Assembly: GCA_022575985.1 (NCBI GenBank)
Contig: JAKSXM010000007.1
Coordinates: 28,584,501-28,648,500 of the forward strand
Source: Anagrus nilaparvatae
Lineage: Eukaryota > Arthropoda > Insecta > Hymenoptera > Mymaridae
Length of the DNA stretch: 64,000 bases
Direction: 5' to 3'
Shown: positions 4,201 through 54,852 of the stretch, piece by piece
Layout: each line of letters starts with the position of its first letter
Position numbering within the stretch: the first letter of the stretch is position 1
Translations under genes and position numbers: made by a program
The notes under the pieces: model-generated
The model's database searches: none
The model's input: the letters and a program-made list of their open reading frames with translations, nothing else
Told to the model about the DNA's origin: nothing

Positions 4201-7200
4201 CGAACAAATTCGAGAAACTGTTGCAGGTTGGAATAATAACTGATTAAATTATTTTAACTTTTTATATTCAGTATTCATAAAATTTTGTTTTTTTCTCTAC
4301 TTTTGTCCTTTAGAGCTTAGCAGAGAGATAGCGAAACTTCAAACTGATCTTAATGCAGCAAAATTGCAGGAATTTGAGGCAATGGAACAAGTTATGCAGT
4401 TAACAGGGCAACTTGAAGAAGAGCGACAATATCGGCAACAAGGTAAAAATTATTTTACTTTTACCTTTAAAATCTGCTTATTTACTGTCTAAATTTATTG
4501 AATATTTATTATAATTTATAATTTATACAAGTTCAAAATTAAAATTCAAGTGATTGAAACAAAATTATGCTCTTTAATGATTGAAACAACGGTGATGTAG
4601 TATAGACTTATTTTTATTTTAAAATATTTTCCATTCTTTGAGATGATAAACTAAACATCTATAAAAAAAAAAAATATACATCAAATATTTCGGCCAAAAA
4701 ACTCACCCAGTAGGTAATTTGGGTCGCTCTTTTCATTTCCGGAGTCCATTTTGACCTAAAACCCCTATTAAATGAGATATCCACTCCCAAAATGGAGTAT
4801 ATTTTCATATAACTTTTAAAGAAACTTATTTATAATTTAAGCTTAATAATTAAAGTAGGATAAATTTCTGAACGATAAATAAAAATTTATTCTATAAAAA
4901 TCCTGATAATTTAATTTATAACCTTGTCATATTTTTTTTTGGAAATAAACAACCGTCAAAAATGTAGATAAAATACCGATCTTTTAAAATTTTAAGGGTT
5001 AATTATATACTAAAAAAATTTTAATTTTTAAATTAAAACATTTTTAAATGTTATTAATACTAAAATTAAATGATTGTTTTTTTTTTAGCTGATGAAAAAG
5101 TAAAAGAATTAATGCTTCACAAAGAAAATATGGAAAGGATATCAAAAATGGTTGAAGAAGAAGTTCAAGTATTAAAAAAGCAATGTGATCAAGAAAAAGA
5201 AAACGCAAGGTGTATAAAATTAGAAGCTGACAGAGTAAGTTTAATTTGCTTATTATTCTTTATCTTTACCAGAGTTTTCACTTATTATCCAAACCAAATT
5301 CGTTCTAGATTCAAAAAGAAAGAAACGTTCTTGCTCATCAATCGGCCCTATTAATGGCGGATATTGGCGATGATCCAAGTGGTAGACTTTTGATTGTTCT
5401 ACAAGAAGTTGAAACCCTAAAAAGGACTTTAGAAGAGGAAAAACAAAGTCACACAGCACAAATTCAACTTCTCCAAGAAAAATTAGAAGAAAAAGAGTCC
5501 AACATCGAATTTGAAATCGTTGAAGAAAAATTAAAGCTTTCGGAATCAGAATTAGAATTAGTGGCTGAAAGAGCTGAGCAAGCTGAAAAATTGGCGGAAG
5601 GATATCGGCAGCAACTTCGGGAATGCGAAGAAAAGATTAAAGAATTAGAAAAAAAAAACTTAGCACCACCTCCACCTCCTCCTCCACCTCCACCTCCTCC
5701 GCCTTTTAATTTGTCACCAGGAATTAAATCGTCCATTAAATTGATTTCTGGAGAGAAAATGAACTCTGTAAATAATAAGTCTGCCATATCGGACATGGAA
5801 AATATGCTTGGAATTAATAAAAAAGCACTTCCAGTTCCTCAACAACCTGGTAATTAAATTATTTTAAAAAAAGTCTTTATTTTAATAAACATATTTAATT
5901 AATTTTATAAAAAATATTTCCTACAGCCATTGATGATATAATTAATCAAATTAAGGGAGGAAGGTTTACATTAAAACAAACTGACGTAAGTTTTCATTTT
6001 TAATTTAATGAAGAAATCGAGAACTAATGTATATTTATTCAAATATTGCATGTTCAAAATTAATTTATTAATTATAAATGTAGTATTTCTTAATGACCAA
6101 TATTGGGCAGGTTGAAAAAACAAATTAGTTTTTTATCATGTATGTGATACTTTTATTAGACGTTTATATAAATATATAAGAAATAATCTTTACATGAAAT
6201 ATGAAATTTTATATATAATTGGAAAATTTAATTTAAAAAATACCTATAATATTAGAAAAACATGATTTAAAATGTAGTGACCGGCTGGTGAATCAATTAA
6301 ATTATAATTTATAACAATCATTTTAAATTATAATAAAATATGAAACGTACAAAAAGAAAAAAATTTCTTGACCAAGAGGGCAATAAATTAGACAATAATA
6401 TATTTATATATTGTGCTAAGTTTCGTGTGCCGTCTAAAATATATAAATTGTTTGAGCAATATTTGATACAAAAATACTATACTAAATAATTAACAAGAGT
6501 TATTGCATAAAAATATATGAAAATTCCATTATAAATTAAATAATTATCTTTGATACCTTCAGAAAAGGTATGTAGATGGCACACAAAACGTCGCACATGT
6601 GGGGATTCACTTTCACACATACACTACCTTAAATATACACACATATACACACAGACACTCACGGCTGAAAAAAACGCCGGTTTTGCAGTCTACACTACAA
6701 TATACACGTAAATCATAGTACTTATTAGAAATATATCATTCGATCAATATCAATAAATAATCATTATATTTTATGTTAGTGGTGAATTATTTAACCCTAA
6801 TTATTGTCTAATTTATTTCCATCTTGGTCAAGAAATTCCTTATCACTCGCAAAATTAATTAAGGGGACACAGAACCGAAAAAATTTGTAAATCAGTTTTT
6901 TTAATTTTTAACAAAATTTATTGATTAAATTAAAAAAATATGAGTTTCACGCCCTCCGCAATAAAAAAACACATCAAATTATTCTAAACAAAAATTTTAA
7001 TATGACCATTTCTTCGAGAATTTTTGGAAATTCGGAAATCTAGAATTTCCAAAAATTTTCGAAGGGATGGTAATATTAAAAGTTTTTTTTAGACTAGTTT
7101 TTTTTATTGCGGAGGGCATAAGATTCATTTTTTTTAAATTTAATCAATAAGTTTTGTTAAAAATATAAATAACTGATTTTAAAATTTTTTTGGTTCTGTG

Positions 7201-7754
7201 GCCCCTTAAGGCTTAAAAATACTGAATTCCTAATTAATTTTATAAGCTTATGCAAATCGTTTATAACATTTAGGTTCTAATTAATTTTTATTTTCCACAA
7301 AATAATAGATATTACAGTACATAAAACGTATCTTATGAGAAACTACAATTAATATAACATATAGAACTTAATGATGCTATCAGTATTCTGTGTTTAATTT
7401 TTGCTTAAACTTGAAAATTTATACATTTGCAGAAAAATAAAAAATGCAGAATAAATTGAAAGCAAATAATGCAAAAAATTACAAATTTTAAAAAAATGTT
7501 AAATTTAGACATCACATTACAATGCTATAGCTTCTTTAAAAATGTTGTAGAAAGATTTTCTCCGTTTAGATTTTAAATAAATAATTAAATTAATTTTTTT
7601 CTTTTAGAAACAAAGAGACGAGGAAAGAAAAAAGAAACAGGAAGAAGATAAAACACCACCAGCACTTTCAGAAATGCTGAATATTTTAGGAACTATGAGA
7701 AAAAGAACAAAGTCCACAAGATCATCTTTTAAATTTTCTAACGAGCCCTCTTGA
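1234..7754 (+). CDS. Shootin-1-like protein, 5'-partial, eight exons
   Basis: Spliced coding exons read at 1234-1347, 2603-2697, 4073-4226, 4314-4442, 5089-5234, 5309-5849, 5927-5985 and 7608-7754 (stop TGA). All have AG acceptors and GT donors and the phases join, giving about 460 residues. Known family role: shootin-1 is a cytoplasmic clutch protein that couples F-actin flow to cell adhesion in axon outgrowth. Visible here: almost continuous Glu/Lys/Gln-rich coiled coil over residues 1-330, with the family pattern NRxLKRxS followed by an acidic stretch in exon 3. There is a run of 13 prolines at about residues 332-344, a WH2/DAD-like helix in exon 7 (IINQIKGGRFTLKQ), and a C-terminal ILGT motif before a basic Ser/Thr-rich tail. 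The order of coiled coil, poly-Pro, short amphipathic helix and ILGT box matches vertebrate shootin-1, but the tail is much shorter. The first exon shown starts mid-codon, so the start codon and probably a few dozen residues lie upstream. Identification is from remembered family sequence, not a search. Confidence 0.88.
1800..2110 (+). repeat. Dispersed repeat, copy 1 (in shootin-1 intron)
   Basis: Clear but diverged similarity to 20058-20325 in the same orientation. Shared stretches include CTTATGGAA, TTTGGAGCTT, GTAAATAACCT and ATATACTAAT-like blocks in the same order. No ORF and no obvious terminal repeats, so the class is unknown. It lies inside the intron 1348-2602. Confidence 0.6.
6361..6838. 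repeat. Foldback element in the last shootin-1 intron
   Basis: Inverted arms of about 39 bp at 6361-6399 and 6799-6838, sharing TTTCTTGACCAAGA and ATTAGACAATAAT with few mismatches, around 400 bp of non-coding sequence. The interior includes CA-rich runs and a CGCCGG-bearing patch near 6670. Looks like a non-autonomous DNA element; no target duplication identified. Confidence 0.65.
6863..7205. mobile_element. Palindromic MITE with TTAA flanks
   Basis: The whole 343 bp folds on itself: it begins GGGGACACAGAACC and ends GGTTCTGTGGCCCC, with further matched blocks inwards to the centre near 7030. TTAA flanks both ends (6859-6862, 7206-7209). TTAA fits piggyBac-type insertion, but a TA target with termini AGGGG/CCCCT is equally compatible. 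No coding capacity. Confidence 0.75.
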
Positions 7755-10562: not shown

Positions 10563-10567
10563 GTTTG
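10563..10567. repeat. Target-site duplication, left copy (copia element)
   Basis: GTTTG immediately before the 5' LTR; the identical GTTTG follows the 3' LTR at 15283-15287. A 5-bp duplication is standard for copia integrases. Confidence 0.85.
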
Positions 10568-10895
10568 TGTTGAATTTTGTATATTATACATGCTATGTAT
10601 TATATTATTTTAGATCTACATAACAGCGCTTTGAAAATCATATACTTTATGTAATAACGATAAGAAGTCGTTGTTTCTTTTTATCGATTCTCTAGCATCT
10701 GCTGATGCTTTCTAGCTTCCTGCAACTCCCCCGCATGGAACAGGCCCAGAGACATTATGCTAATGTCTTTTTGGGCGTTAGTCTTTAATAAGCTTGACTC
10801 AAATATAGTCGCATCTATATTCTGTATCACATAATTATTTTACACTTTATATTAATAATAAATCCTGTTTTATATACATAATCTTGTTTTTTTTA
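10568..10895 (+). repeat. Copia 5' LTR, 3'-truncated
   Basis: Matches the 3' LTR from its first base through about 10890, with roughly five substitutions. It then stops short: the 3' LTR's terminal segment (TTTAGCAAAATATTCAACA) is absent, and the gag ATG follows within a few bases at 10898. The LTR contains an AATAAA near 10857-10862. Likely a deletion that also removed the primer-binding site and leader. Confidence 0.85.
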
Positions 10896-10897
10896 TC

Positions 10898-12127
10898 ATG
10901 TCAGACAAAGAAGTATTAGAGTTGACGAAGCTCGATTCTTCAGGAGCGAATTTCCCTTTGTGGAAATTCAGCATCAGTTTCGCACTGCAAGGTAGAGGAC
11001 TGATGGAATTTGTCAAAGGTACAGCCGTAGCACTGGCTGATGACAATGAAGGAAAATTGCAAAAGCACAACAATAAAAAGGCACTAGCATGTGCTTTCTT
11101 ATTAGCATCAATTGATAGAAAATTGCACCCTTTATTGATAAATTGCACGAATGCAAAAGAAATGTAGGAAAAGCTAGAAAGCTTATATGGCGCCAGAAAT
11201 GAGGATGCAAAAACAAGCGCATAGGAAGATTTCTATGCATATAAAATGAAAAATGGCATAGCAATGTCAACCCAAATTGAAGAATTTGAGCAAATTGTGA
11301 AAAGGCTGGAAAATGCAGGTGATAAGCCATCTGAGGACGCCATAAAATCTAAGTTGTTAAATTATTTGCCACCGAAATTTTCAACTTTCCGTATGGCGTG
11401 GGAATCGGCTCCAGCAGCTGAACAATTAAAAGACACCCTAATAGCAAGATTAATTAGGGAAGGTAGGCGCCTTATGAAATCAGAGGAAGAAACCTCTTCA
11501 GATCTGGCATTACAAGTAAGACAGATTAATTTAAATAAAGACGGGAATAATAAGGCTCCCGTCAAGAAAAATTACAAGGCCGAACGCGAGAAAAAGATAA
11601 GGGAGTTAAAAAAGAGGACTAAGTGTGCGTTGTGTAAGCAGAAGGGGCATTGGGTACGAGAATGTCCGAAAAAAGCCGAAGACGAGCAAGCAGTCGATGT
11701 AACAAAAAGTGCAGGTGATTATCAGCAGTCATCTGCATATGTATGTGATTATATAGCTATGTATTCAAAACAGCTTGACTGCTGCACAGCAAGTGATTGG
11801 ATTGCCGACTCCAGCTCCGGTGCAACAGCACATATGACATCAAGTGAGAATTATTTTTCTAGCTTAAAACCACTTAATTTCAAGCATGGGGTAGAAATAG
11901 CTAATAAAGTGATTATTGAGGCTGCTGGAATTGGTACAATTACTATTGAAGAAAATTTAAATGGCAAAATAATACGGTGCGAATTAAGAGACGTTTTATA
12001 TGTACCTGAATTAAATCGAAATCTTTTCTCGGTCAGTAAAGTGACTGATAAAAACTTTTCTTTTCATGCTTACAAAGAAAATGTGAAATTCGCAACCCTT
12101 TCGGAAAAATTTCATCAAAAGGTATAA
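10898..12127 (+). pseudogene. Copia gag and protease region, interrupted
   Basis: Opens with ATG at 10898 in one frame that is broken by in-frame TAG codons at 11165-11167 and 11222-11224, then stays open to TAA at 12125. Visible: Gag-like N-terminus (GANFPLWKFSISFAL), a CCHC zinc knuckle (CALCKQKGHWVREC, around 11624-11665), and an aspartic protease site in which DSG is expanded to DSSSGAT (around 11806-11826). The gag-pre-integrase part begins near the end. The reading continues in another frame after about 12120, so a frameshift separates it from pol. Confidence 0.88.
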
Positions 12128-14913
12128 GGAAAAATGGGCTTTTCTATTTTCCATATAAAGTAATAAAATCTGAAATTGAAAATTCAGCAGCATTTATTGC
12201 CAAAACTCCCGAAGAAAAATTGCATTTATGGCATGAGCGCTTTGGTCATATAAATGAAAAAGCAGTCCGTAGCACCGGAAAGCTTTTTAATTTAGATAAA
12301 GTTTTTGAAAACATGCCAGTAGGTAAGAAATTTTTTTGTGAAAGCTGCTTGTTTGGAAAGCAAACTAGAAAATCTCATAGAACTGTAATGCGGAAAAGTA
12401 ATTATAAGCCCGGTGAAAAAATACATACCGATTTATGTGGCCCGGTAAATATTGAGTCCCCAAAAGGGACAAAATATTTTTTACTTTTTAAAGATGAGGC
12501 AACTAGTTATAGAAAAGTGTACTTTCTAAGATACAAGTCTGAAACTTTTGAATTTTTCAAAGCTTTCGAGGCATTGGTTTTAAGACAAACTGGCAATAAT
12601 ATTAAAGTCTTAAAATCAGATAATGGGAAAGAATATGTTTCAAATGAATTTTCAAAATATTTACAAGATAAAGGTATAATTTCTGAGCATTCGTCACCTT
12701 ACATTCATGAGCAGAATGGTCGCGCCGAAAGAGAAATAAGGACTATTACTGAGTGCGCAAGAACAATGTTATGCAACAGAAATATTGATAGGAGACTTTG
12801 GACAGAAGCAGTTAGCACAGCGTGCTACATATTGAACAGGGTCAATTTAAATCAAACTGAAGAAAAAGTACCTTACGAAAAATGGTTTAGACAAGCACCG
12901 GAAGTAAATCATATGCGAATATTTGGGGCAGCAGCATATTTAAATATTCCAAAAGAAAAAGGCCGAGCAAAATTTGATGAAAAAAGTGAAAAAATGATTT
13001 TTGTAGGTTATGATGGCGATTCCTCAAACTATAGATTATGGAATGCAAATTCTCAAAAAATTATTATAAGTAGTGACGTTGATTTTAATGAATACGAGAT
13101 TCATCGCATAACGGAAACCAATACATTCAAAGTCAACCTCGATTTTTGTATTCTAGAAGAGAACGAAATAGAAGAAAATCAAGAGGAAGTTGCTGAACAA
13201 GACGAAGAGCAAGAGTTAAATATCGACGAAGCAAACCTGCAAGATCAAGAACCTGCCCCCTTAAGGCGTGTGTTAAGAAATAGACAGCAGCTGACTCCGA
13301 TTCAACGGTACGGCATATCGGTAGCATTTCTTGCCGAAGTTATACCAATAACTTACAATGATGCAATTTCAAGTGAAAATGCGGAAAATTGGGAAACTGC
13401 AATGAGTGAGGAAATGCAAGCCCTTCAAGAAAATCAAACTTTGTTTTTAACGAGTTTACCGAAAGGCCGACAAGCTATCGGCTGTAGATGGGTATTTTCT
13501 GTGAAATCAACCCCAGAAGGCAATATTTCTCGATATAAAGCACGATTGGTCGCAAAGGGTTATTCACAGCGTGAAGGCATCGATTATGGCGAAACCTTTG
13601 TACCTGTCATTCGTTACGAATCTATTCGAGTACTTTTAGCAATAGCGGCTAAGGAAAATTATGAAATTGCAAAATTCGATGTCAAAACAGCTTTTTTAAA
13701 TGACGATTTAGAAGAAGACATATATATATATGCATATGCAAATACCACAAGGATATGCAGTAAAAAGTCAAAACAGCATACTCAAGTTGAAGCGGAGTTT
13801 GTTAGGATAATGCAGGCTTCTCGCTGTTGGAATGAAAAATTTGTGAAATTTTTAAGTGAGTTTAATTTTAAAAATATTGAAAGTGATAAGTGTGTTTTTG
13901 TAGGTAAAGTGCTAAATTATAAGGTATTTTTAGCTTTATATTTCGATGACGGATTAGTGATTTCAAAAAGTACTCGCGCAGTAGAAGAAGTGCTAAATTA
14001 TTTAAAATTGCATTTTAAAATTACGCATGATTCAGCGAATGAGTATGTTGGTATGGAAATAAAAAGCGTGATAGAGAGAATTATATTTTAAAAATTAGTC
14101 AAGCTGGCTATGTAAGAAAGTTGTTAGAAATTGAATATGTTAGAAACGAAACCAGTAAGTACACCCGCAGAGCCTGGTCTTTATTTGAACAAAAGCGAAA
14201 GTAAAAATGAACTTGTAAATGTACCTTACCGTGAAGCTATCGGTTCGCTTTTGTTCTTATCTAGAGTAAGTAGACCAGACATAGAATATGCGGTGAATTA
14301 CTTAAGCCAGTTTCTTGATTCCTATGACCAGGAACATTGGAAAGCCGTTAAAAGGATTTTTCGATATTTAATCGGGACAATTGATGTCGGTTTAGTTTAT
14401 GGAAACAGTGGGAGTACAGGTGACGTGAACTTTGAAAGTTCCACACAACTTGTAGGTTACATTGATGCTGATTATGCCGGTTGTTTAAGCACTCGAAGAT
14501 CCAGAAGCGGGTATATATTTCTTTTTAACGACACTCCAATTTCTTGGTCATCGCAGCGCCAAGAGGTAGTTGCATTATCTACGGCTGAAGCCGAATATAT
14601 TGCATTATTTCAGGGCACAAAAGAGTCGGTATGGTTGCGAAGAATGTTGAATGAATTAGGTCATGAGCAAAAATGTGTACCTATATTTGTTGATAACCAA
14701 GCCGCAATTAAATTGGCAAAAAGCACTGAATACCATAAGCGAACTAAGCATATTGATGTACGGTATCATTATATTTGCAAAATAGTTAAAAGAATAGAAA
14801 TTGATATTTCTTATGTTAATACGAAATTGCAATTGGTAGATATTTTAACAAAGCCATTGACAAAATTGCCTTTTGCCAATTTAAGACGAATGTTAAATAT
14901 TTTTGAATTTTAA
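12124..14913 (+). pseudogene. Copia pol region (integrase, RT, RNase H), interrupted
   Basis: Starts with the gag-pre-integrase box (HLWHERFGHIN). The integrase core has its D,D,E residues in HTDLCGP, LKSDNGKEY and EQNGRAERE. Reverse transcriptase follows, with RWVFSVK, YKARLVAKGYSQ, FDVKTAFLN and a YFDDG catalytic box at about 13938. RNase H/C-terminal boxes are YIDADYAG, STAEAEYIAL and RTKHIDVRYHYI. Between about 13725 and 13815 the open frame is nonsense, while the +1 frame encodes the expected RT residues (IPQGYA, KLKRSL); paired frameshifts bracket it. A second shifted stretch (about 14065-14125) contains the stop at 14089-14091. The last frame ends at TAA 14911-14913. Confidence 0.9.
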
Positions 14914-14926
14914 ATAGATCAAAAAT

Positions 14927-14935
14927 AAGTGGGAG
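14927..14935 (+). other. Copia polypurine tract
   Basis: AAGTGGGAG directly abuts the TGTT start of the 3' LTR. This purine run is where plus-strand DNA synthesis primes in LTR elements. Confidence 0.7.
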
Positions 14936-15282
14936 TGTTAAATTTTGTATATTATACATGCTATGTATTATATTATTTTAGATCTACATAACAGCGCTTT
15001 GAAAATCATATACTTTATGTAATAACGATAAGAAGTCGTTGTTTCTTTTTATCGATTTTCTAGCATCTGCTGATGCTTTCTAGCTTCCTGCATCTCCCCC
15101 GCATGGAACAGGCCCAGAGACATTATGCTAATGTCTTTTTGGGCGTTAGTCTTTAATAAGCTTGACTCGAATATAGTCGCATCTATATTCTGTATCACAT
15201 AATTATTTTACACTTTATATTAATAATAAATTCTGTTTTATATACATAATCTTGTTTTATTTATTTAGCAAAATATTCAACA
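14936..15282 (+). repeat. Copia 3' LTR, complete (347 bp)
   Basis: Begins TGTTAAATTTTG and ends ATATTCAACA, forming short TGTT/AACA inverted ends, followed by the GTTTG duplication. It preserves the terminal 20-odd bases that the 5' LTR has lost. Confidence 0.9.
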
Positions 15283-20325: not shown

Positions 20326-20439
20326 TATAAAAAAATCCTTTAGCTTTCAAGAGACCTTAAATCAATAATACTTTAAGCTGAAATTGTATTACATTTAACC
20401 AACTAACGCCCAAGATCCTATCTACGTTTCAGTTTGTTT

Positions 20440-20880
20440 TTTAAAACTAAATTAATTTTGAAACCAAAATTTATATTTTTAAAAATGTATCCCGATGTAA
20501 AAATGTCTTATTTTTCAGAATCTGGAGTGAAATTTAGGATAAAATAAACAGAAAACTTAATATTGTGGGTCAAAGTTGGCCACTATAAAAATCACCATGT
20601 TACTTATCAGAATTTTAAATAACATTTTAGGTCATATTTTTTTGTATATTTAATTTTTTTTAAATTCCAAAATGGTAGATTTAAAATATCTTATTTAAAA
20701 TATATTATGTAATTTACAAAACTGATAAACAACTTGTCGATTTTTTTAGTGTCCAACTTTGACCCAAAATATTGAGTTTCTGCTTGATTTTATCCTAAGT
20801 TTGGAATCAGATTCTGAAAATTTATACTTTTGTACATAGGGCTAGATTTTTAGGGATAAATAAATTTTTAAAATAATTTA
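20440..20880. repeat. Imperfect foldback element (~440 bp)
   Basis: The two halves face each other: TTTTCAGAATCTG and GGGTCAAAGTTGGCCACT on the left pair with AGTGTCCAACTTTGACCC and CAGATTCTGAAAA on the right. Further matched blocks run outwards (TTAGGATAAAAT). No ORF. Borders approximate. Confidence 0.65.
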
Positions 20881-21689
20881 GTGTGCAACAATGAAACGTC
20901 ACGTAGATAAAGTCTTAGGCATTAAACGTTATTTCATTAAACGTTTATTTTGCATTATTATGATATTTCACCGATGCAAAGTTTATACAAAAGTTATAAA
21001 ATTTATAGCGCAGCTGACATTTATAAGGTTTTTCACCTGTGTGAAGCAAAAATACAAGAATAAACACGCCTTTAGAAATACCGGATAGGGTCCAAAAACT
21101 ATAGGCATCATCAAATCGATAAAAAAAAACTCAGTTTTTAATAATAAAAGGCAATCTGATTGATTATTTTTGTTATACCCTGTCCACATAGTGTCGATTT
21201 TTTCATCCTATAAGGTAGAACTTAATAAATATCAGCAAGCCTGAATTATTAAGAGTCCATAAACCCGGATTATTCTAAGTCTCTAAATTAAAATTCTTGC
21301 CATTTGACCCATCCCTCTTGATTTTTGTATTCCCACCTTTTACTGCAGTCAATTATACGGGGTTAGGGTGTATAACTCCTGGCCGCCACCAAAATCAGTC
21401 TATTATTACTTGGTTTATTATTTTGTTTTTCAAGTCTCTGAATCCGAATATCTGAAAATCGCCCTTAGGAAATGTGCGCATCACCCTAAATTAGCAAAAA
21501 ACACCTCTTAGGATATATTATTTAATGCCTATGAGTTTTTTTGAAATAATTAATTTTGTTTATTGTCCATCGTGCCTAAAAAATATAAAAAATAAAATAA
21601 ATTTTCAACCCCATAACCTGAAAAATAAGAACAAAATTGAAAATTAAAAAAAAATAAACTCTACTCCAGGGAACCCTCCTCCTGCTTCC
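20881..21689. other. Intergenic DNA with partial dispersed repeat
   Basis: At 21230-21330 there is a fragment of the repeat family seen at 26.5, 34.3, 37.0 and 52.2 kb (CTGAATTATT...AAACCCGGATTATTCTAAG). Nothing else recognised. Confidence 0.4.
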
Positions 21690-29600: not shown

Positions 29601-30448
29601 AAATCTCATCAAAAACGCGTTTTTCTTACTTTTTTTTATTTTTTGAAAATTTGGTAAAAAAGGTCTAAACTTTGACCGCTTATAACTCGGCCCCAGTGCG
29701 TCCAACTGAAAAATTACTAATGATCATTTTTGCAGGAAATTTTTTTAGGTACAACTTTTACTTGAAGCTTTCTTTTTATTTATTTTGCTTTTTGAGTTAT
29801 TTGCAAAAAACCGTTTTGCCCCAACTTTAGCCCCCTTGGGAGAGGGGGGGGGGCAGTACTAGGTTGGAATTTCTGATTTTGTTTCCCCTTACAAATTAGC
29901 CCAAAACCAGCACACTCCACAACTTTTTTTTTCTGGAGGATTTTTGTCCATGTCGAGACCTTTATTCAATAGTCTAAATAGTATATGTTTTAATGAAATA
30001 AAGATTTGAAAAAGATTCAAGTCACATGCAAGCAGTATACCTAATATTACTAAAAGTTAATAATTTTTCTCCGAAATAGTTATGTCGATCACATTAAATT
30101 TACTAAATTTTTAGTAAATTTTAATATTTTCAATGAACTTAATTCGTAGCGTTATTTTATTTATCTAGAAAAAAAGTTGGTAATGTTTCTACAAGATTTA
30201 CTATTAAGGAAAACATATTTCCTTAATGTTTTCTGATATATAGTTTATAGAAAATTATCATCTGGAAATTGAAGAACAAAAGATGAATATATATGGTATA
30301 GAAATATAGAAAATGTATAATATGTACAATCTAACGACGAAAAAGAGAGTAAAGAGACTCTATATATTATAATATATGACCCAATTGAATATACTTATTA
30401 CGTGCAGAATATACGAAAGTGTATACACATAGAGACTGCGTGTCTACG
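26691..30448. other. AT-rich DNA, no gene recognised
   Basis: About 3.7 kb without a recognisable exon. It includes the short element at 27805-27875, a CACAC-rich patch near 28310-28450 of higher GC content, and a possible old repeat at 29640-29960 (GCTTATAACTCGGCCCCAG, and a G-run at 29839-29853). Confidence 0.35.
27805..27875 (-). repeat. Short CAAGGGATA-type element, partial copy
   Basis: Shares GATTTTTAC, TGC(C/T)TACACTCGCTC and TTTTTTCCCTTGCT-like ends with the copy at 58720-58810. Confidence 0.45.
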
Positions 30449-31178
30449 GCAGCTTGTAGCGGCCTCTCGTTGACACGCATGTAAATCGCGTTTTTTGCTT
30501 GCTTGCATGCATGCAAGCAAAATTTTTAAAAAAATTTTTTAATAAAAAAAAGAAAATAACAGCTTAATGTTTATTTTTAAGTGTAATAAACCTAAACAAG
30601 GTGAATTTTATACTAAATTATGCAATAAAAACAAAAATTTGATATTAATTAAACCCAAATACCAAAAATGATTATTGGTTATATCAGAGTACTATTTTTT
30701 AATGTTGATTATTGATGAATAAATGGTGGACAATAAAAATAAGATTTAGTTTTATAAATTTAATCCTTTTTTTTTCAGATTAATAACATTTTAGATCATA
30801 TAAAATAATAGAATTTCATTGTTTTTAATATGGGGGACACTATTTTACTATGAAATTCATGTACTAAGTATAAGCATAACTAAATTTGAAAAAGGGACAA
30901 TGCAGAATGATTAAACTGCTGAAAAAGATAAAAGGATACTTATTTGTTCATAATGTGCAAGAATCAAATTACATGCTGATCATCGAAGAAACTTTATTTT
31001 ATCAAGAGAAAGTTTATACGATAATTCAAGTCCAAAACTTATTATTTTTATGAACTCGCTTAGTTTTCAAAGGATTTCATAACAGACCAGAAACTAATTC
31101 TATATCAATTGCCTCTCTTACATATCCTGGTTGAAGTCGAGTCAAATGCTGAAACTCGAAGCCCAGAGTATGGTTGAA
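30449..31178 (+). repeat. Left arm of a 730-bp inverted repeat
   Basis: Compared line by line with the reverse complement of 31650-32379, I found no mismatch and no indel across all 730 bases. It begins GCAGCTTGTAGCGGCCTCTC, contains the nested palindrome CTTGCATGCATGCAAG near 30501, and has no substantial ORF. The longest stretch is 48 codons (30907-31053), too short to trust. Past 31178 the match continues weakly for about 40 bp into the spacer. Confidence 0.95.
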
Positions 31179-31649
31179 ATGCCTACCAAACATCATCTTT
31201 TACACTCACCTTATTATGCAGAGCATTAGTAACAATTTAAAGATTTCATTTCATTTGTTTATTAATTTATTAGAGATTTTTTTGCTATGTCTTTATATAT
31301 TGGTAGGTGAAAAATTTATTAAAAACCACTTTTTTACTGTTTTAAACTGGAGCAGATTGAAAAATGAGGACTTATTTTTCTTTTTCTAAGCCATCATTTG
31401 AGTCTTCTGCAAAATCTTCAAGCTTTTACCTCATATGTTTATCAAATTATTTAAATTTTCAAGTATTCTTATTCGTTAAATCTTGAGAGAGGGTGAGAAA
31501 ATTGTATTTACACAACTATATATTTAAAAACAAAAAATTTGAGACAAAGAGAAAAAGATACTAATGTTTTATAACAATTGAAGACAACAATATATTTCAA
31601 ACCTGGAGCATAATAAGATAAGATTAAAAGATGATGTTTGGTATTTGAA

Positions 31650-32379
31650 TTCAACCATACTCTGGGCTTCGAGTTTCAGCATTTGACTCGACTTCAACCA
31701 GGATATGTAAGAGAGGCAATTGATATAGAATTAGTTTCTGGTCTGTTATGAAATCCTTTGAAAACTAAGCGAGTTCATAAAAATAATAAGTTTTGGACTT
31801 GAATTATCGTATAAACTTTCTCTTGATAAAATAAAGTTTCTTCGATGATCAGCATGTAATTTGATTCTTGCACATTATGAACAAATAAGTATCCTTTTAT
31901 CTTTTTCAGCAGTTTAATCATTCTGCATTGTCCCTTTTTCAAATTTAGTTATGCTTATACTTAGTACATGAATTTCATAGTAAAATAGTGTCCCCCATAT
32001 TAAAAACAATGAAATTCTATTATTTTATATGATCTAAAATGTTATTAATCTGAAAAAAAAAGGATTAAATTTATAAAACTAAATCTTATTTTTATTGTCC
32101 ACCATTTATTCATCAATAATCAACATTAAAAAATAGTACTCTGATATAACCAATAATCATTTTTGGTATTTGGGTTTAATTAATATCAAATTTTTGTTTT
32201 TATTGCATAATTTAGTATAAAATTCACCTTGTTTAGGTTTATTACACTTAAAAATAAACATTAAGCTGTTATTTTCTTTTTTTTATTAAAAAATTTTTTT
32301 AAAAATTTTGCTTGCATGCATGCAAGCAAGCAAAAAACGCGATTTACATGCGTGTCAACGAGAGGCCGCTACAAGCTGC
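31650..32379 (-). repeat. Right arm of the 730-bp inverted repeat
   Basis: Exact reverse complement of 30449-31178. Spacer 31179-31649 is 471 bp of ordinary AT-rich DNA. No target duplication is evident (left flank CTACG, right flank ATTAA), so it does not look like a simple transposon insertion. Transcription through it would give a 730-bp perfect dsRNA stem. Confidence 0.95.
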
Positions 32380-34274
32380 ATTAAAAGAGATGATTCCTCT
32401 TCATAAGAGTAAAATCTATCTATACACAAATACATACTTGGGTTTGTGTGCGTGTCTATATATATTTTGTATATGGTTGATTTGCAATTTCTCATGTTTT
32501 TATTTCAAAATTTTCCTGTGATAACTACCATTGATTTAATTAAAATATTCCCCAAAATATTTTATTGTAATATTACAATAAAGATTTTCGGAAAAATAGA
32601 TAAGATCTTATAAAAATCTTGAATTTTGTCGTTATTTTGTCCTAAATTCATGTCTTAAATTAAATTCTTTTCTTAAATTCGTCTTAAAATTACTTCAAAA
32701 TGCAACAAATCAAGGCGTTCATCTTTAGAACTAAATATTTTAAATTTATTTCTTTATTTCTTTATTTCAAAATTAACGGGCTTATAACCGTTTTAACAAT
32801 TTTCTAATATAAATTAATTGCATTTAATTCAGATTACAGTATATGCACTATATTAATTTGTAAATTTGTTATAAATTACAAGAATGGAAAATTTAAAAAA
32901 TTAAAAGAAAATTAGATCTATTTTTTTATCAAAATTTATGTACATTTGAAATTAAGAATATTAACAAATTATACAATTAATGTGATTTTAATAAAAGAAT
33001 TATAATTTTGTCAAATGTAAAATTGGACTAGAGAAATAATTTTGATTTTTGTTGTTTTATCACAGCATAAAATATAATAAACTTTTAACAGGTTCAGGAT
33101 GTTATGGTTATAATCGGTCATGTTAATCGTAGTGGCGTAATCTATTTTTTTTCAGATATTGTTTGAATAATTGGTTATATCAGAAGTTTTCCCTATCTCG
33201 AGGCATAGACTATTCCACTCTCTTCTGATCCAGAGAGAGGGGAGCGGAGCAGAAAATCTCTTCTAGTGGTCTATAGGCCTTCTTAGATTATAGTTTGAAT
33301 TTCTTCTCATCAAACAAAGCGCAAAGTAAAGTAATTAGTCGAATGGATCACTTTGTATCGTGAATTTGATTTGCAAAGGCAAGCTTTGGCGAAAATTTTT
33401 TTAATTACAAAATTTTTTGTAAAGATTACATAAAATTTTTAACTTGTTTATGAATGAATTTTAGTAATATTGAAAATGGTTATAATTACTATAATTTTTG
33501 AGCATAAAATAACCAAAGATTATAATGTAAATAAAACTAGCATTTTTGGTTATAACAGTAATTTTTCTCCGTATGGAATCAAATATCTCGTAAAATTAAA
33601 AAATAAGTTTTATATTTCTTATAAACAGGGTGATTTGTAGAGTACTATTGAAGTAGTATAAAGTTTATTAGAATCATATTAATAAGTGTATTAGGCACGT
33701 GATACATAAGCGATGATGATCCAAGTTTTAAAAAAAATCCCCTATAAAATTTATTTACGTACATGGCAAAAGGATATTAAACTTCAACAGTCTGAAATCT
33801 CGCGCCCCCTTTTACATACTTCAGTATAGAAAATAACTAACGGCACGTGGCGGAAAATGCTTTTGTCACATGCCTATGGCTATACGTATAATTTAGACAT
33901 TTTGAATTTCATTTACATTTATATTATTCATTTTTAGGGGGGTATTTCTATATATTTTAATTTTAACAAATTTAATATTACTAAATAGCTATTTTTAATC
34001 TTATTTCACCAAAATTATTATCTGAAAAAGTTTTTCAATGGTACAAAAATAATGCATTAAATACTTTTCCATAAAGGTAGCGCCTTGAAATGCAATCAAT
34101 TGAATATGCCAAGTCAGGAGTCAATGATTTTTGGCCTGGAACAATTTTCAAAATTGGGCTTGGACTAAAAAAGTAAATACCAAATGAAGGTATGCGTGAA
34201 TTATGTACGATGAAAAATATATTGTCAAAAATTGAACAAGATGATTAAAACCTCTTTTTTCAAGTGCATAAGAA
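32380..34274. other. AT-rich DNA, no gene recognised
   Basis: A patch at 33190-33360 with GA/CT-rich sequence (GAGAGAGGGGAGCGGAGCAG) stands out in composition but has no convincing ORF or splice context. Nothing else to report. Confidence 0.3.
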
Positions 34275-37803: not shown

Positions 37804-39061
37804 CGCAAAAAAAACCATGACGGTTTACCATCTGGTTACCAGATGGTTTACTAGATGGTTAATCACCAGGTATTTTAAGAAAATAATAAGAAGTATAATA
37901 ATAATAATAATAAGAATAAAATAATAAAATAATAAGACCTTCAGTATGAAAATGAACCTTGCAGGTAGAAGCGGATACCCTGGGGGTATGATTTTGAATT
38001 TTTTAACCCAAGATATTTTCCGATTTTCCAACATGGTGGACCACAAAACTTAAAAAAATTACATTTTGACTTTATTAGGGGATTTTTTAGGGCGAGAAAA
38101 ATGAATTTTGTGTGGAAAATATTCAATTTTTCGAACCAACATATTTTCCAATTTTCCAAGATGGTGGACCATAAAATTTAAAAAAATTAATTTTTACCTT
38201 TACAAAGAGGTTTTCTAGGGTGAGAAAAATGAATTTCGGGTGGAAAACAAAGTTAATCCAAATAAAATGCAATTAATCCAAATAAATCTACTATATTAAT
38301 TAGTTCAATAGATTCAATATGCGTGTATTTATATCTAAGAGGACAAGCGTACTTAACAAAAGTTCCAAATTTGTACCATTATTATTAAAAATAATTTTTA
38401 AAAAAATTCTCTTTCAACAACAAATTTCTTATAGAACGAATGTGTAAAATTATTTTCTTTTAATAACCTTAAAAACTCCTATTCAATGTACAAATGTTCT
38501 ATATCGTACTACATATTTCCTTATCATAGAAAACTTCAAAATGCGTGAGAGTAAATAATTTTAAATTTTCCACCTCAAATTCATTTGTCTGGCCCTCTCA
38601 AACGCTCCTGTAAAGTATAAAGTTAATTTCTTTATGTTTTTTATTCTTAGGAAGTCGAAAAATATTTTGGGTTAAAAAATATAATATTTTCCACCCACAA
38701 TTCATTTTTCTCGCCCTAAAAAATCCCCTTTGTAAAGTTAAAAATTAATATTTCTAAGTTTTATGGTCCGATATCTTTGAAAATCAGAAAATATCTTGGG
38801 TCGAAAAATTGAATATTTTCCACCAAAAATTCATTTTACTCACCCTAAAAAACCCTCTTATAAAGTTAAAATGTAATTTTTTTAAGTTTTGTGGTCCGCC
38901 ATCTTGGGAAATCAGAAAATATCTTGGGTTGAAAAATTAAAAATTATACCCCCTGGTTATCCGCTTCTACCTATACGGTTCATTTTCATCCTGAGGGTCT
39001 TATTATTTTCTTAAAATACCTGGTGATTAACTATCTGGTAAACCGTCATGGTTGTTTTGCG
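37804..39061. repeat. Large foldback (1.26 kb) with internal ~140-bp tandem units
   Basis: Outer ends CGCAAAAA...CCATGACGGTTTACC and GGTAAACCGTCATGG...TTTTGCG are complementary, as are ATTAACTATCTGG/CTAGATGGTTAAT and GGTAGAAGCGGATA/TATCCGCTTCTACC. Towards the centre each arm holds repeated units of about 140 bp (AGATATTTTCCGATTTTCCA, ATGGTGGACCA, TAGGGCGAGAAAAATGAATT). There are two units on the left and three, inverted, on the right. Non-coding. Confidence 0.8.
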
Positions 39062-44250: not shown

Positions 44251-46047
44251 CCAGAAAAGTAAAGACTGGCCCAAATCGCACGTAAATGGTAAACTGCGAT
44301 TTGGGTCATTCCTTATTTATGGACAAGAGTCGTGTAACATTTTTCTGTATCTGTGGTGAGAAAACACGTCTTTGCCGGACGCGTAGCCTCCGGGAAATAC
44401 GTGCTTTCTCGACGCAGACCAGAAAAAAAAATTTCGTCTTTGTCTGCTGAACCATTTTCAAGACAAAATTTTAAATTAAGGTGCTAGCTTCAAACCATCA
44501 TCACTCAAAAAAGTTAATAGTAATTTTTAAAAAATGAGTCGAATGTTAAAATGGTAATACTGGCAGCAAATTAAAAATTGCTCACTTTAAATGAAAAATG
44601 AATATTTGAAGTATTGATTAATTGAATTGAAAGAATGAATTCGAAAAAGCTGTAGTTCAACTGTAGTTGATAAATTCTGAGCAGTCTAGTTTTTCTATAT
44701 ACGAGAAAGTAAGTTCGCTTAGTATGTTTATTCGTCGTTGAGATGTATACAAATTCCTAGCTTATACAAATTTTCATTTCGCGTTTCGAATTCATGATGC
44801 AATCAGTTTATATGTCTGTAGATACCATCTTAAATCTCTCAAATACCATCGGTTGATTGGGATTGAGATTATAGCTTTATTATGAAAGTTCTCTTACGAC
44901 AATGTTTAACTCATTAACGCCGGGCAGAGAGTTTTGGAAGTGAGCAAAAATAAATATATTCTCTTATAGATAAGTGGCTAAAAAGTTCATTCTTATAGTA
45001 AAATTTCATGCTCAGAATCTGACATTAGTTTTCACCAACAACCCTTAAATATACCCTCAAAACGGGGGTGAAAGGGGTAGCTCAGGCATTATTAGGAAAT
45101 GTTTGGAAAAATCATTAAAAAAAGGGCATATCCTGGATGCTAAAAGTACGAAAATAGTAAAATAACTTCTTTTGGGGGGTAGTTTTAGCCAATTTAGGTG
45201 TGAAATTTTAATTATTTATGAAAAAGAAGTCGAAATTCTTGATCAGTGACTCAAAAAGCCCATATGGTATAAATATGAGCGCTCAAAGTGCGCAAATATG
45301 TAAAAAAACCTCTTTTTGGGGGTAGTTTTTGTAAATTTAAGGGCGAAGCCCGTATTTCTCTGCCAAATGACCCCAATTTTCGTTTTTAGCGACCCGAAAA
45401 ACTTCCAGTAGAGAAAATTTGTTGTTCGCCAGTGATAATACAACCAAACCCATAATTTGACTAGAGTACCACCCCTATCCACCTTTTCAGGGTTGTAAAT
45501 AGGGCCGAAATGAATGAGACCTCAATGTATACAAAGTTTACTTAAATTTGCATAAAAAATATTATTTTCAAATATTTTTCAATAAAGTAGGATACTTTTT
45601 TCATTGATTTTTCCAAACATTTCCTAATAATGCCTGACCTACCCCTTTCATCCCCGTTTTGAGGGTATATTTAAGGGTTTTAGGTGAAAACTAATGTCAG
45701 ATTCTGAAAGAGCGTGAAATTTTACTAATAGGATGAAATATTTAGCCACTTATCTATAAGAGAATATATTTATTTTTGCTGACTTCCAAAACTCTCCGCC
45801 CCGGTGTTAATGAGTTAACCACAAATTTTTTTATAGTCTATAAGAATAATCTTATTTGATAACATTAAAGTCTTTTGTTCGAGTTCCATTATAAAAAAAA
45901 AAGATTTTACAAGACTTTTTTATGTACCTGCCAATGTATAATTACTTAAATAATGTCAAGACCCTTGTCCAGAAATAAAGAATGCCTCAAATCTCAGTTT
46001 ACCATATAAAATTTACGTGAGATTTGGGCCATTATTTACTTTTCTGG
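44251..46047. repeat. 1.8-kb foldback containing part of another foldback
   Basis: Outer pair 44251-44335 / 45957-46047 (CCAGAAAAGTAAA...GGCCCAAATC faces its complement) and inner pair 44905-45115 / 45580-45820 (TAACTCATTAACGCC; CTTATAGATAAGTGGCTAAA; CCCTTAAATATACCCTCAAA) are complementary in the right order. The centre, 45115-45480, is similar to the right half of the element at 53944-54852 (GAGCGCTCAAAGTGCG, GGGGGTAGTTTTTG, GTTCGCCAGTGA). Confidence 0.75.
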
Positions 46048-53943: not shown

Positions 53944-54852
53944 CCAGTCAAAATACAGGGGGGGGGGGGCGGGGGCTTGTATTTTCACTGGCGAACACGA
54001 GATTTGCTCTACAGGTTTTTAAGTCGCTGAACACGAAAATCGGGATCATTTCATAAGGAATTGGGGAAAAAAAAACCTTAAATTTGCAAAAACTACCCCC
54101 AAAAAGGTTTTTTTTACATATTCGCACTTTGAGCGCTCAAATTTGGAACCATACTAGTTTTATGGGTCGCTGATCAAGAATTTCAACTTCTTTTTCATAA
54201 ATAATAAATATTTCACCCTTAAAATAGCTAAAACTACCCCTAAAAAGGAGTAGCTTATTTTTGATATTTTTACACATTATGCGTCCGAAGTAAGTTCTTA
54301 TACATTTTTTAGACCGCTAATCTAGAATTTCGATTTCTTTTTCAAAAATAATAAATATTTCACCCTTTCGCACTAAGAGCATCCAGGATATGCCCATACA
54401 GGTTTTTTGGGTCAGTAATAAAAAATTTCGACTTCTTTTTCATAAATAATAAATATTTTTCACCCTTAAATAACTAAAACTAACCCTAAAAAGGGCGTTT
54501 TTGTTATTTTCGTACTTTGAGCGTCCAGGATATGCCCATACAGGTTTTTTGGGTCGCTATTCAAGAATTTCAACTCCTTTTTTGTGGTGAAATTTTAATT
54601 ATTTATGAAAAAGAAGTCGAAATTCTTGATCAGCGACCCAAAAAACCCATACGGTACAAATCTGAGCGCTCAAAGTGCGAATATGTAAAAAAAAAACCTT
54701 TTTGGGGGTAGTTTTTGCAAATTTAAGGGTTTTTTTTCCCCATTTTTTTATGAAATGACCCCAATTTTCATGTTTAGCGACTTAAAAACCCTATAGTTGA
54801 GCAAATCTCGTGTTCGCCAGTGAAAATACAACCAAACCCGTATTTTGACTGG
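53944..54852. repeat. Foldback (909 bp) with internal tandem units
   Basis: Ends CCAGTCAAAATAC and GTATTTTGACTGG are exact complements, followed by TTGTATTTTCACTGGCGAAC + ACGAGATTTGCTC facing its complement. Inside, units starting (G/A)G(G/A)(T/C)C(G/A)(C/G)T.AT near 54164, 54311, 54409 and 54549 repeat 'AAGAATTTCAACTTCTTTTT + CATAAATAATAAATATT' and 'GAGCGTCCAGGATATGCCCA'. A G-run with CG (53958-53976) sits by the left end. Part of this element recurs at 45115-45480. Confidence 0.8.

What the first reader, a model, noticed from the sequence alone, without database searches (positions are those of the whole stretch)
30449..32379. Perfect inverted repeat: two 730-bp arms, 471-bp spacer
Every base of 30449-31178 pairs with 31650-32379 on my reading, with no indel, while all other foldbacks in the window are visibly diverged. 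It has no clear target duplication, no transposase and no real ORF. The possibilities are a very recent inverted duplication, an actively homogenised palindrome, a hairpin-RNA (hpRNA) locus that would give endo-siRNAs when transcribed, or an assembly artefact. The weak continuation of the match past the perfect arms suggests a once longer palindrome kept identical by conversion.
Basis: partly seen in the sequence, partly recalled or inferred. Interest (0 to 1): 0.75.

Follow-up and report, generated by a model that had tools for sequence, protein, structure and literature searches.

The report
Young foldback transposon with identical arms

Summary
The own-genome search answered once in 34 tries: the arm has 45 matches in a 488.7-Mb genome, counting the window's two arms. 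Other copies are paired inverted (L013, L014/L015, L016), and L013 shares the spacer. The real termini lie 4 bp further out (30445 and 32383). A 41-nt terminus recurs with 0-3 mismatches at 10 ends in 9 of 20 fetched loci, while arms of the two subfamilies are only 76-81% alike.

So this is a young, non-autonomous long-TIR (foldback-type) DNA transposon, not a private inverted duplication and very unlikely an artefact. Arms evolve element by element: 22 sites group arms by element and 0 by side in one subfamily, 14 and 0 in the other; in a tree the arms are sisters in 4 of 4 elements. Spacer edges keep left/right identity. Other paired copies have diverged arms; this one has none of that yet. 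Drosophila Galileo shows the same pattern (PMC2775673, passages). Target duplication, transposase and superfamily are unresolved; an hpRNA role is untested. New member of a known kind.

The parts
30445..30485 (+). Left terminus of the element (TACGGCAGCTTG...), 41 nt conserved across copies
   Evidence: 0-3 mismatches at 10 termini in 9 of 20 fetched loci
30449..31178 (+). Left arm (long terminal inverted repeat), identical to the right arm
   Evidence: 730/730; 45 genomic matches including both arms
30499..30520 (.). 22-bp perfect palindrome TTGCTTGCATGCATGCAAGCAA in the left arm; four other loci are broken or interrupted at or next to it
   Evidence: break points
31179..31219 (+). Inner edge of the left arm: homologous to the right edge but diverged; side-specific, shared with L013
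31220..31607 (.). Single-copy spacer of the element (also in L013, same orientation); no homology between its halves beyond chance
31608..31649 (-). Inner edge of the right arm, with one private block of about 6 nt next to the perfect arm
31650..32379 (-). Right arm, exact reverse complement of the left arm
32308..32329 (.). The same 22-bp palindrome in the right arm
32343..32383 (-). Right terminus (reads TAATGCAGCTTG... inward; 2 of 41 differ from the left end)

Best explanation
A young, non-autonomous DNA transposon of foldback type: two long terminal inverted repeats around a short non-coding spacer. Shown: it belongs to a dispersed family with the same terminus, arms and (in L013) spacer; arms are more alike within an element than between elements; spacer edges are not homogenised; the three other paired copies have diverged arms. 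Inferred: a transposase supplied in trans binds the conserved 41-nt terminus; arms are equalised by copying one arm from the other (gene conversion between arms, probably during repair or replication of the folded or excised element) in the lineage that gives rise to new copies; after insertion this largely stops and arms drift apart. This copy has perfect arms because its last equalisation, most simply its insertion, is very recent.
For: Dispersed paired inverted copies. Shared 41-nt terminus, conserved although arms of the two subfamilies are only 76-81% identical. Sites grouping arms by element versus by side: 22 v 0 of 523 columns (window, L013) and 14 v 0 of 670 (L014, L016). Arms sister in 4 of 4 elements: support 100/99 for L014, weaker for L013 (91/92) and L016 (88/88); the window pair is identical. 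18 window-lineage changes on both arms and 0 on one arm; 11 of the 18 lie in one 17-bp block and may be one event, leaving 7 v 0. Spacer and inner edges of window and L013 match side for side. Window arms are younger than the Copia insertion 15 kb away: 0/730 v 6/330 LTR differences, Fisher p=0.0009.
Against: No target duplication in the two copies with both termini (window, L016), apart from TA at both ends and a 5-of-6 match in L016. No transposase linked to the family. Of the 20 fetched loci 11 have no terminus and 8 of the other 9 have only one. The right end of the window copy differs from the family end in two of its outer four bases. The 45 matches came from one answered search that scores only best candidates. 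Only four paired elements could be compared.
Confidence: 0.82

Rival explanations
1. An older insertion whose arms are still being equalised in place by gene conversion at this locus (a maintained palindrome).
For: Window-lineage changes are on both arms and none on one arm; an abrupt inner boundary is what a conversion tract edge would give.
Against: L013, L014 and L016 show arm differences (13 of 523, 32 and 29 of 670 columns), so conversion in place is not general. A recent insertion needs no continuing process.
Confidence: 0.2
2. A hairpin-RNA locus: transcription through both arms gives a 730-bp dsRNA diced into siRNAs, possibly against sibling copies (a transposon-derived silencer).
For: Perfect self-pairing (predicted -1282.5 kcal/mol, 730 of 730 arm pairs); the arms of sibling copies L012 and L013 are 94-96% identical to these arms, gaps left out.
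Against: Any long-TIR element pairs like this; no data on transcription were at hand; no non-transposon target seen (no 20-nt match to the rest of the window); the 45 genomic matches were not all annotated.
Confidence: 0.08
3. A private inverted duplication made by fold-back synthesis from a short imperfect inverted repeat at the inner edge (as in PMC3907307 and PMC11724301, passages read).
For: Perfect arms bounded inside by an inverted seed of 36 columns, 32 identical, and no target duplication; I held this view.
Against: Other loci carry the same paired arms, spacer and termini.
Confidence: 0.02
4. Assembly or polishing artefact (false inverted copy, or arm differences erased by short-read polishing).
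For: Exact identity over 730 bp; reads were not available.
Against: Independent copies share the architecture; contig C62 is 74.1 Mb; other copies in the same assembly keep arm differences; left and right inner edges agree with L013.
Confidence: 0.05

Closest known systems
Galileo (GalileoN copies, Drosophila buzzatii; PMC2775673, passages read)
   Same: About 575-bp TIRs around a 350-bp middle segment; TIRs over 99% identical within a copy but about 7% divergent between copies (GalileoN-1 and -2)
   Different: Galileo has 7-bp target duplications and (PMC3573991, abstract passage) internally repetitive TIRs and a P-superfamily transposase; here no 7-bp duplication, no tandem array in the arms, transposase unknown
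Tetris (Drosophila virilis foldback element; PMC4079207, passages read)
   Same: Foldback structure, few complete copies, no conserved ORFs, TIR repeats grouping by element in 2 of 3 complete copies
   Different: 8-10 bp target duplications and TIR-220 repeats that also form arrays; neither seen here
Tm1 Mutator/Foldback (root-knot nematodes; PMC3169594, passages read)
   Same: Long TIRs, MITE-like non-autonomous copies, conserved terminal motifs
   Different: 8-10 bp, mostly 9-bp, target duplications in 45 of 53 complete elements, tandem motif-C repeats, TIRs of one element 93% identical on average
Maintained inverted repeats of Caenorhabditis (PMC1803023, abstract and discussion read)
   Same: Near-perfect long arms that stay alike, gene conversion proposed as one cause
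   Different: Loci with paralogous gene pairs kept in place between species; here a mobile, dispersed family

Membership tests
Foldback-type (long-TIR) DNA transposon, structural class | Long terminal inverted repeats making up most of a dispersed element | tested here: met
Foldback-type (long-TIR) DNA transposon, structural class | Conserved termini shared by copies | tested here: met
   41 nt, 0-3 mismatches (limit of the scan 11), 10 termini in 9 of 20 loci; the loci were chosen as hits to the arm
Foldback-type (long-TIR) DNA transposon, structural class | Target site duplication at intact copies | tested here: inconclusive
   2 copies with both ends: none in the window; 5 of 6 nt in L016; TA at both ends of both
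Foldback-type (long-TIR) DNA transposon, structural class | Cognate transposase | tested here: inconclusive
   a tnp2 fragment near solo arm L012 only; a Polinton-like cluster near L026 has other ends
Galileo / P superfamily | 7-bp target duplication | tested here: not met
   0 of 7 in the window, 2 of 7 in L016 at the TACG boundary
Galileo / P superfamily | Internally repetitive TIRs | tested here: not met
   no tandem array at score 50 or more listed within 30449-32379
Mutator/MULE foldback | 8-10 bp target duplication | tested here: not met
   window 2 of 8, 1 of 9, 3 of 10; L016 1 of 8, 4 of 9, 6 of 10
hpRNA locus | Transcribed hairpin yielding Dicer-dependent siRNAs (features as in PMC10317233, passages) | not testable with these tools
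   no RNA data
hpRNA locus | Arms complementary to a distinct target gene | tested here: inconclusive
   no target in the window; the genomic matches fetched look like sibling or repeat copies, but the 45 were not all annotated
Polinton/Maverick | Element ends equal to the Polinton TIR | tested here: not met
   the Polinton-like cluster has its own inverted repeats, about 6 kb inside the family terminus

The most novel reading that the evidence does not exclude
New copies of this family are born with two identical arms because one arm is re-copied from the other during each transposition cycle (arm regeneration through the folded element). If so, arm divergence is a clock started at insertion, and the inner edge marks where the copying stops.
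Probability: 0.2. Interest if true: 0.55.

Novelty: new member of a known kind. Interest (0 to 1): 0.3.

Why it matters
It turns a striking 'perfect palindrome' into a dated event: the youngest of the four paired copies examined of a long-TIR family, with clear concerted evolution of the arms. The contrast between perfect outer arms and side-specific inner edges, visible across independent copies, makes it possible to test when and how foldback transposons equalise their arms, a pattern reported in Galileo and Tetris (passages read). Nearly identical, closely spaced arms also mark a potential break and inversion site.

Tried and rejected
Fold-back inverted duplication seeded by the 36-column inner inverted repeat: my leading idea until the genome answered; rejected by dispersed copies.

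Coding or exon origin of the arms: 9 ORFs from arms, spacer and edges (two of them reach into the left flank) gave no Pfam match except one at E 0.22, far below its cut-off; a 57-aa and a 40-aa ORF found no relatives in the protein collection; no Rfam or tRNA.

Viral, phage, plasmid or bacterial relative: 4 exact patterns gave 0 hits in viral contigs; 3 bacterial hits to an 18-mer, not followed up; no phage or plasmid match.

Polinton as autonomous partner: suggested by genes inside the L026 terminus, rejected because that cluster has its own inverted repeats. tnp2 fragment beside solo arm L012: left open, no second arm in the 30 kb on its inner side.

A 12-bp hairpin at the left outer edge (11 of 12) looked special: 0 of 679 GC-rich random 12-mers reach this, but 4.2% of all random 12-mers do. 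Four of its outer bases are the family terminus TACG and the rest is flank, so I give it no weight. A 14-nt piece of the terminus has two further 3-mismatch hits in the window (24845, 37961), not pursued.

The host gene at 5309-5854 was first taken for a formin from memory; no call supports that name.

Full report
Observation. The inverted repeat is exactly as described: 730 of 730 bases of 30449-31178 pair with 31650-32379. With gaps the match runs inward to 31219/31608 (764 of 773 columns). This inner 41 bp is beyond chance (0 of 300 shuffles), the rest of the spacer and the outer flanks are not. In 11 other foldbacks of the window the longest exact run is 40 nt.

First tests. The arms have no copy elsewhere in the window beyond short AT-rich matches of at most 38 bp, no long ORF, no Pfam match except one far below cut-off, no protein relative for two of the ORFs, no Rfam family, and no relative in phages, plasmids or, by four exact patterns, viral contigs. 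No target duplication was seen. On this evidence I favoured a fold-back inverted duplication seeded by the short imperfect inner repeat, which fits the literature on such events (PMC3907307, PMC10164571, PMC11724301: abstract or passages read).

The genome changed that. One own-genome search of 34 tries was answered: the window is G000:C62:28584501-28648500 in a 488.7-Mb assembly of 393 contigs, and the 730-bp arm has 45 matches, including its own two arms; the tool says such counts are lower bounds. Apart from one 97-bp piece, no other match exceeds 95%. Several matches come in inverted pairs: C161 (L013), C373 and C281 (L014 and L015, 99.7% alike over 4395 columns and so counted once) and C196 (L016). 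In L013 the similarity runs through the spacer (93.8%). Aligned arms span 619/627 bp in L013, 1050/1042 in L014 and 1136/1170 in L016, with identities of 94.3%, 93.4% and 86.6% when gaps count. L012 and L017 have one arm only; L024-L026 match at the terminus only over the outer 59-90 bp (L026 has further inner-arm and spacer pieces 1.2 kb away on the other side).

Termini. Aligned ends show that the element starts 4 bp outside the perfect arms, at TACG. The 41-nt left terminus of the window recurs with 0-3 mismatches at 10 ends in 9 of the 20 loci scanned, the other 11 having none within 11 mismatches; L014 and L015 are duplicates, so 9 ends in 8 independent loci, and only L016 has two. The loci were fetched because they match the arm, so this is not an unbiased count. 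Yet the arms of the two subfamilies (window, L012, L013 versus L014, L016, L017) are only 76-81% identical, so the terminus is more conserved than the arm, as expected of a transposase recognition end (inference). The window's right end reads TAAT instead of TACG. Neither copy with both ends shows a convincing target duplication: in the window nothing but TA at both ends, in L016 the same TA and a 5-of-6 match. The superfamily is therefore open.

Concerted evolution. Arms were aligned outer to inner. Among 523 columns present in window, L013 and L012 arms (the outermost part of the L013 arms is missing), 22 sites group the arms by element and 0 by side; in L014 and L016, 14 of 670 by element and 0 by side. 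The window carries 18 changes found on both arms and none on one arm; L013 has 4 on both and 13 differences between its arms; L014 and L016 arms differ at 32 and 29 sites (with the wider column set the counts for L013, L014 and L016 are 15, 33 and 51). Eleven of the 18 window changes fall in one 17-bp block and may be one event or an alignment effect; without it the contrast is 7 to 0. A maximum-likelihood tree puts the two arms of each element together in 4 of 4 cases; support is strong for L014 (100/99), below the tool's star level for L013 (91/92) and L016 (88/88), and the window arms are identical; shuffled labels do as well in 1 of 200. By contrast the spacer edges and spacer of the window and L013 match side for side (2 sites by side and 0 by element in the 41 inner columns). 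So the ancestor already had distinct left and right inner edges, while the outer arms have been equalised since.

Timing. Zero of 730 differences bounds divergence at about 0.4%, or about 0.7 million generations at a recalled rate of 2.9e-9 per site. A local yardstick agrees: the Copia insertion at 10567-15264 has 6 LTR differences in 330, significantly more than 0 in 730 (p=0.0009). Since the three other paired copies have drifted to 2.5-5% arm divergence by substitution, the simplest reading is that equalisation acts in the lineage that makes new copies and fades after insertion; this copy is simply new. Conversion still going on at this locus is not excluded.

Comparison. Drosophila GalileoN copies have about 575-bp TIRs around a 350-bp middle; two of them are over 99% identical within a copy and about 7% divergent between copies (PMC2775673, passages). 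Tetris TIR repeats group by element in 2 of 3 complete copies (PMC4079207, passages). The present family works like these but fails Galileo's 7-bp duplication and repetitive TIRs and the 8-10 bp duplication of Mutator-type foldbacks. I file it as a foldback-type element of unknown superfamily. I did not compare it with a transposon library, so I do not claim that the family is undescribed.

Function. A transcript would fold into a 730-bp duplex (-1282.5 kcal/mol predicted), and siRNAs from it could match sibling copies; but this holds for any long-TIR element and no expression data are at hand.

Limits. The terminus, spacer and whole-element searches of the genome never ran (33 unanswered calls in all). 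Copy number, target duplication, transposase and empty sites remain open.

Noticed in passing
window 10567-15264: Copia-type LTR retrotransposon; LTRs 324 of 330 identical; coding region split over several frames, with gag, integrase and RVT_2 matches.
   Followed up: partly
window 37922-39013, 44903-45821, 53977-54831, 20404-20924, 6859-7209 and others: Many diverged foldbacks (arms mostly 68-90% alike); 6859-7209 has TTAA at both ends, like a TTAA-targeting MITE (the MITE reading is recalled).
   Followed up: partly
window 5070-5854 (+): Host gene exon(s): coiled coil plus polyproline; for 5309-5854, 43 relatives with E <= 0.001 (up to 67% identity) in the protein collection, none named.
   Followed up: partly
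L014, L025/L035, L026, L017: Four family loci are truncated or interrupted at positions 47-64 of the arm, at or next to the 22-bp palindrome (51-72), as if that hairpin were a break or insertion hot spot; L024 ends at 90 instead.
   Followed up: partly
L036:599-2191 (C95): A different compact foldback (arms 790/772 bp, 93.4%, spacer 31 bp, ends GGGTAATTCC) flanked by ATTA on both sides; the same arm follows directly on the family terminus of L035.
   Followed up: partly
C342:6.148-6.166 Mb (L047, L040, L039): Polinton/Maverick-like gene cluster (name recalled; Pfam supports a type B DNA polymerase in two frames and a phospholipase A2-like domain) with its own short inverted repeats; described only.
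   Followed up: partly
C317:31.419-31.514 Mb: Arm fragment 566-730 recurs four times at 31,443-base steps, suggesting a tandem segmental duplication.
   Followed up: no
L032:1289-1786 (-): tnp2-type transposase fragment (PF02992, E 3e-6, just under its cut-off) about 0.4 kb from the solo arm L012.
   Followed up: no
L021:1935-2690 (C95): Inverted repeat built from the inner arm segment in reversed polarity, with its outer seven deciles perfect and the inner three at 81-88%.
   Followed up: no
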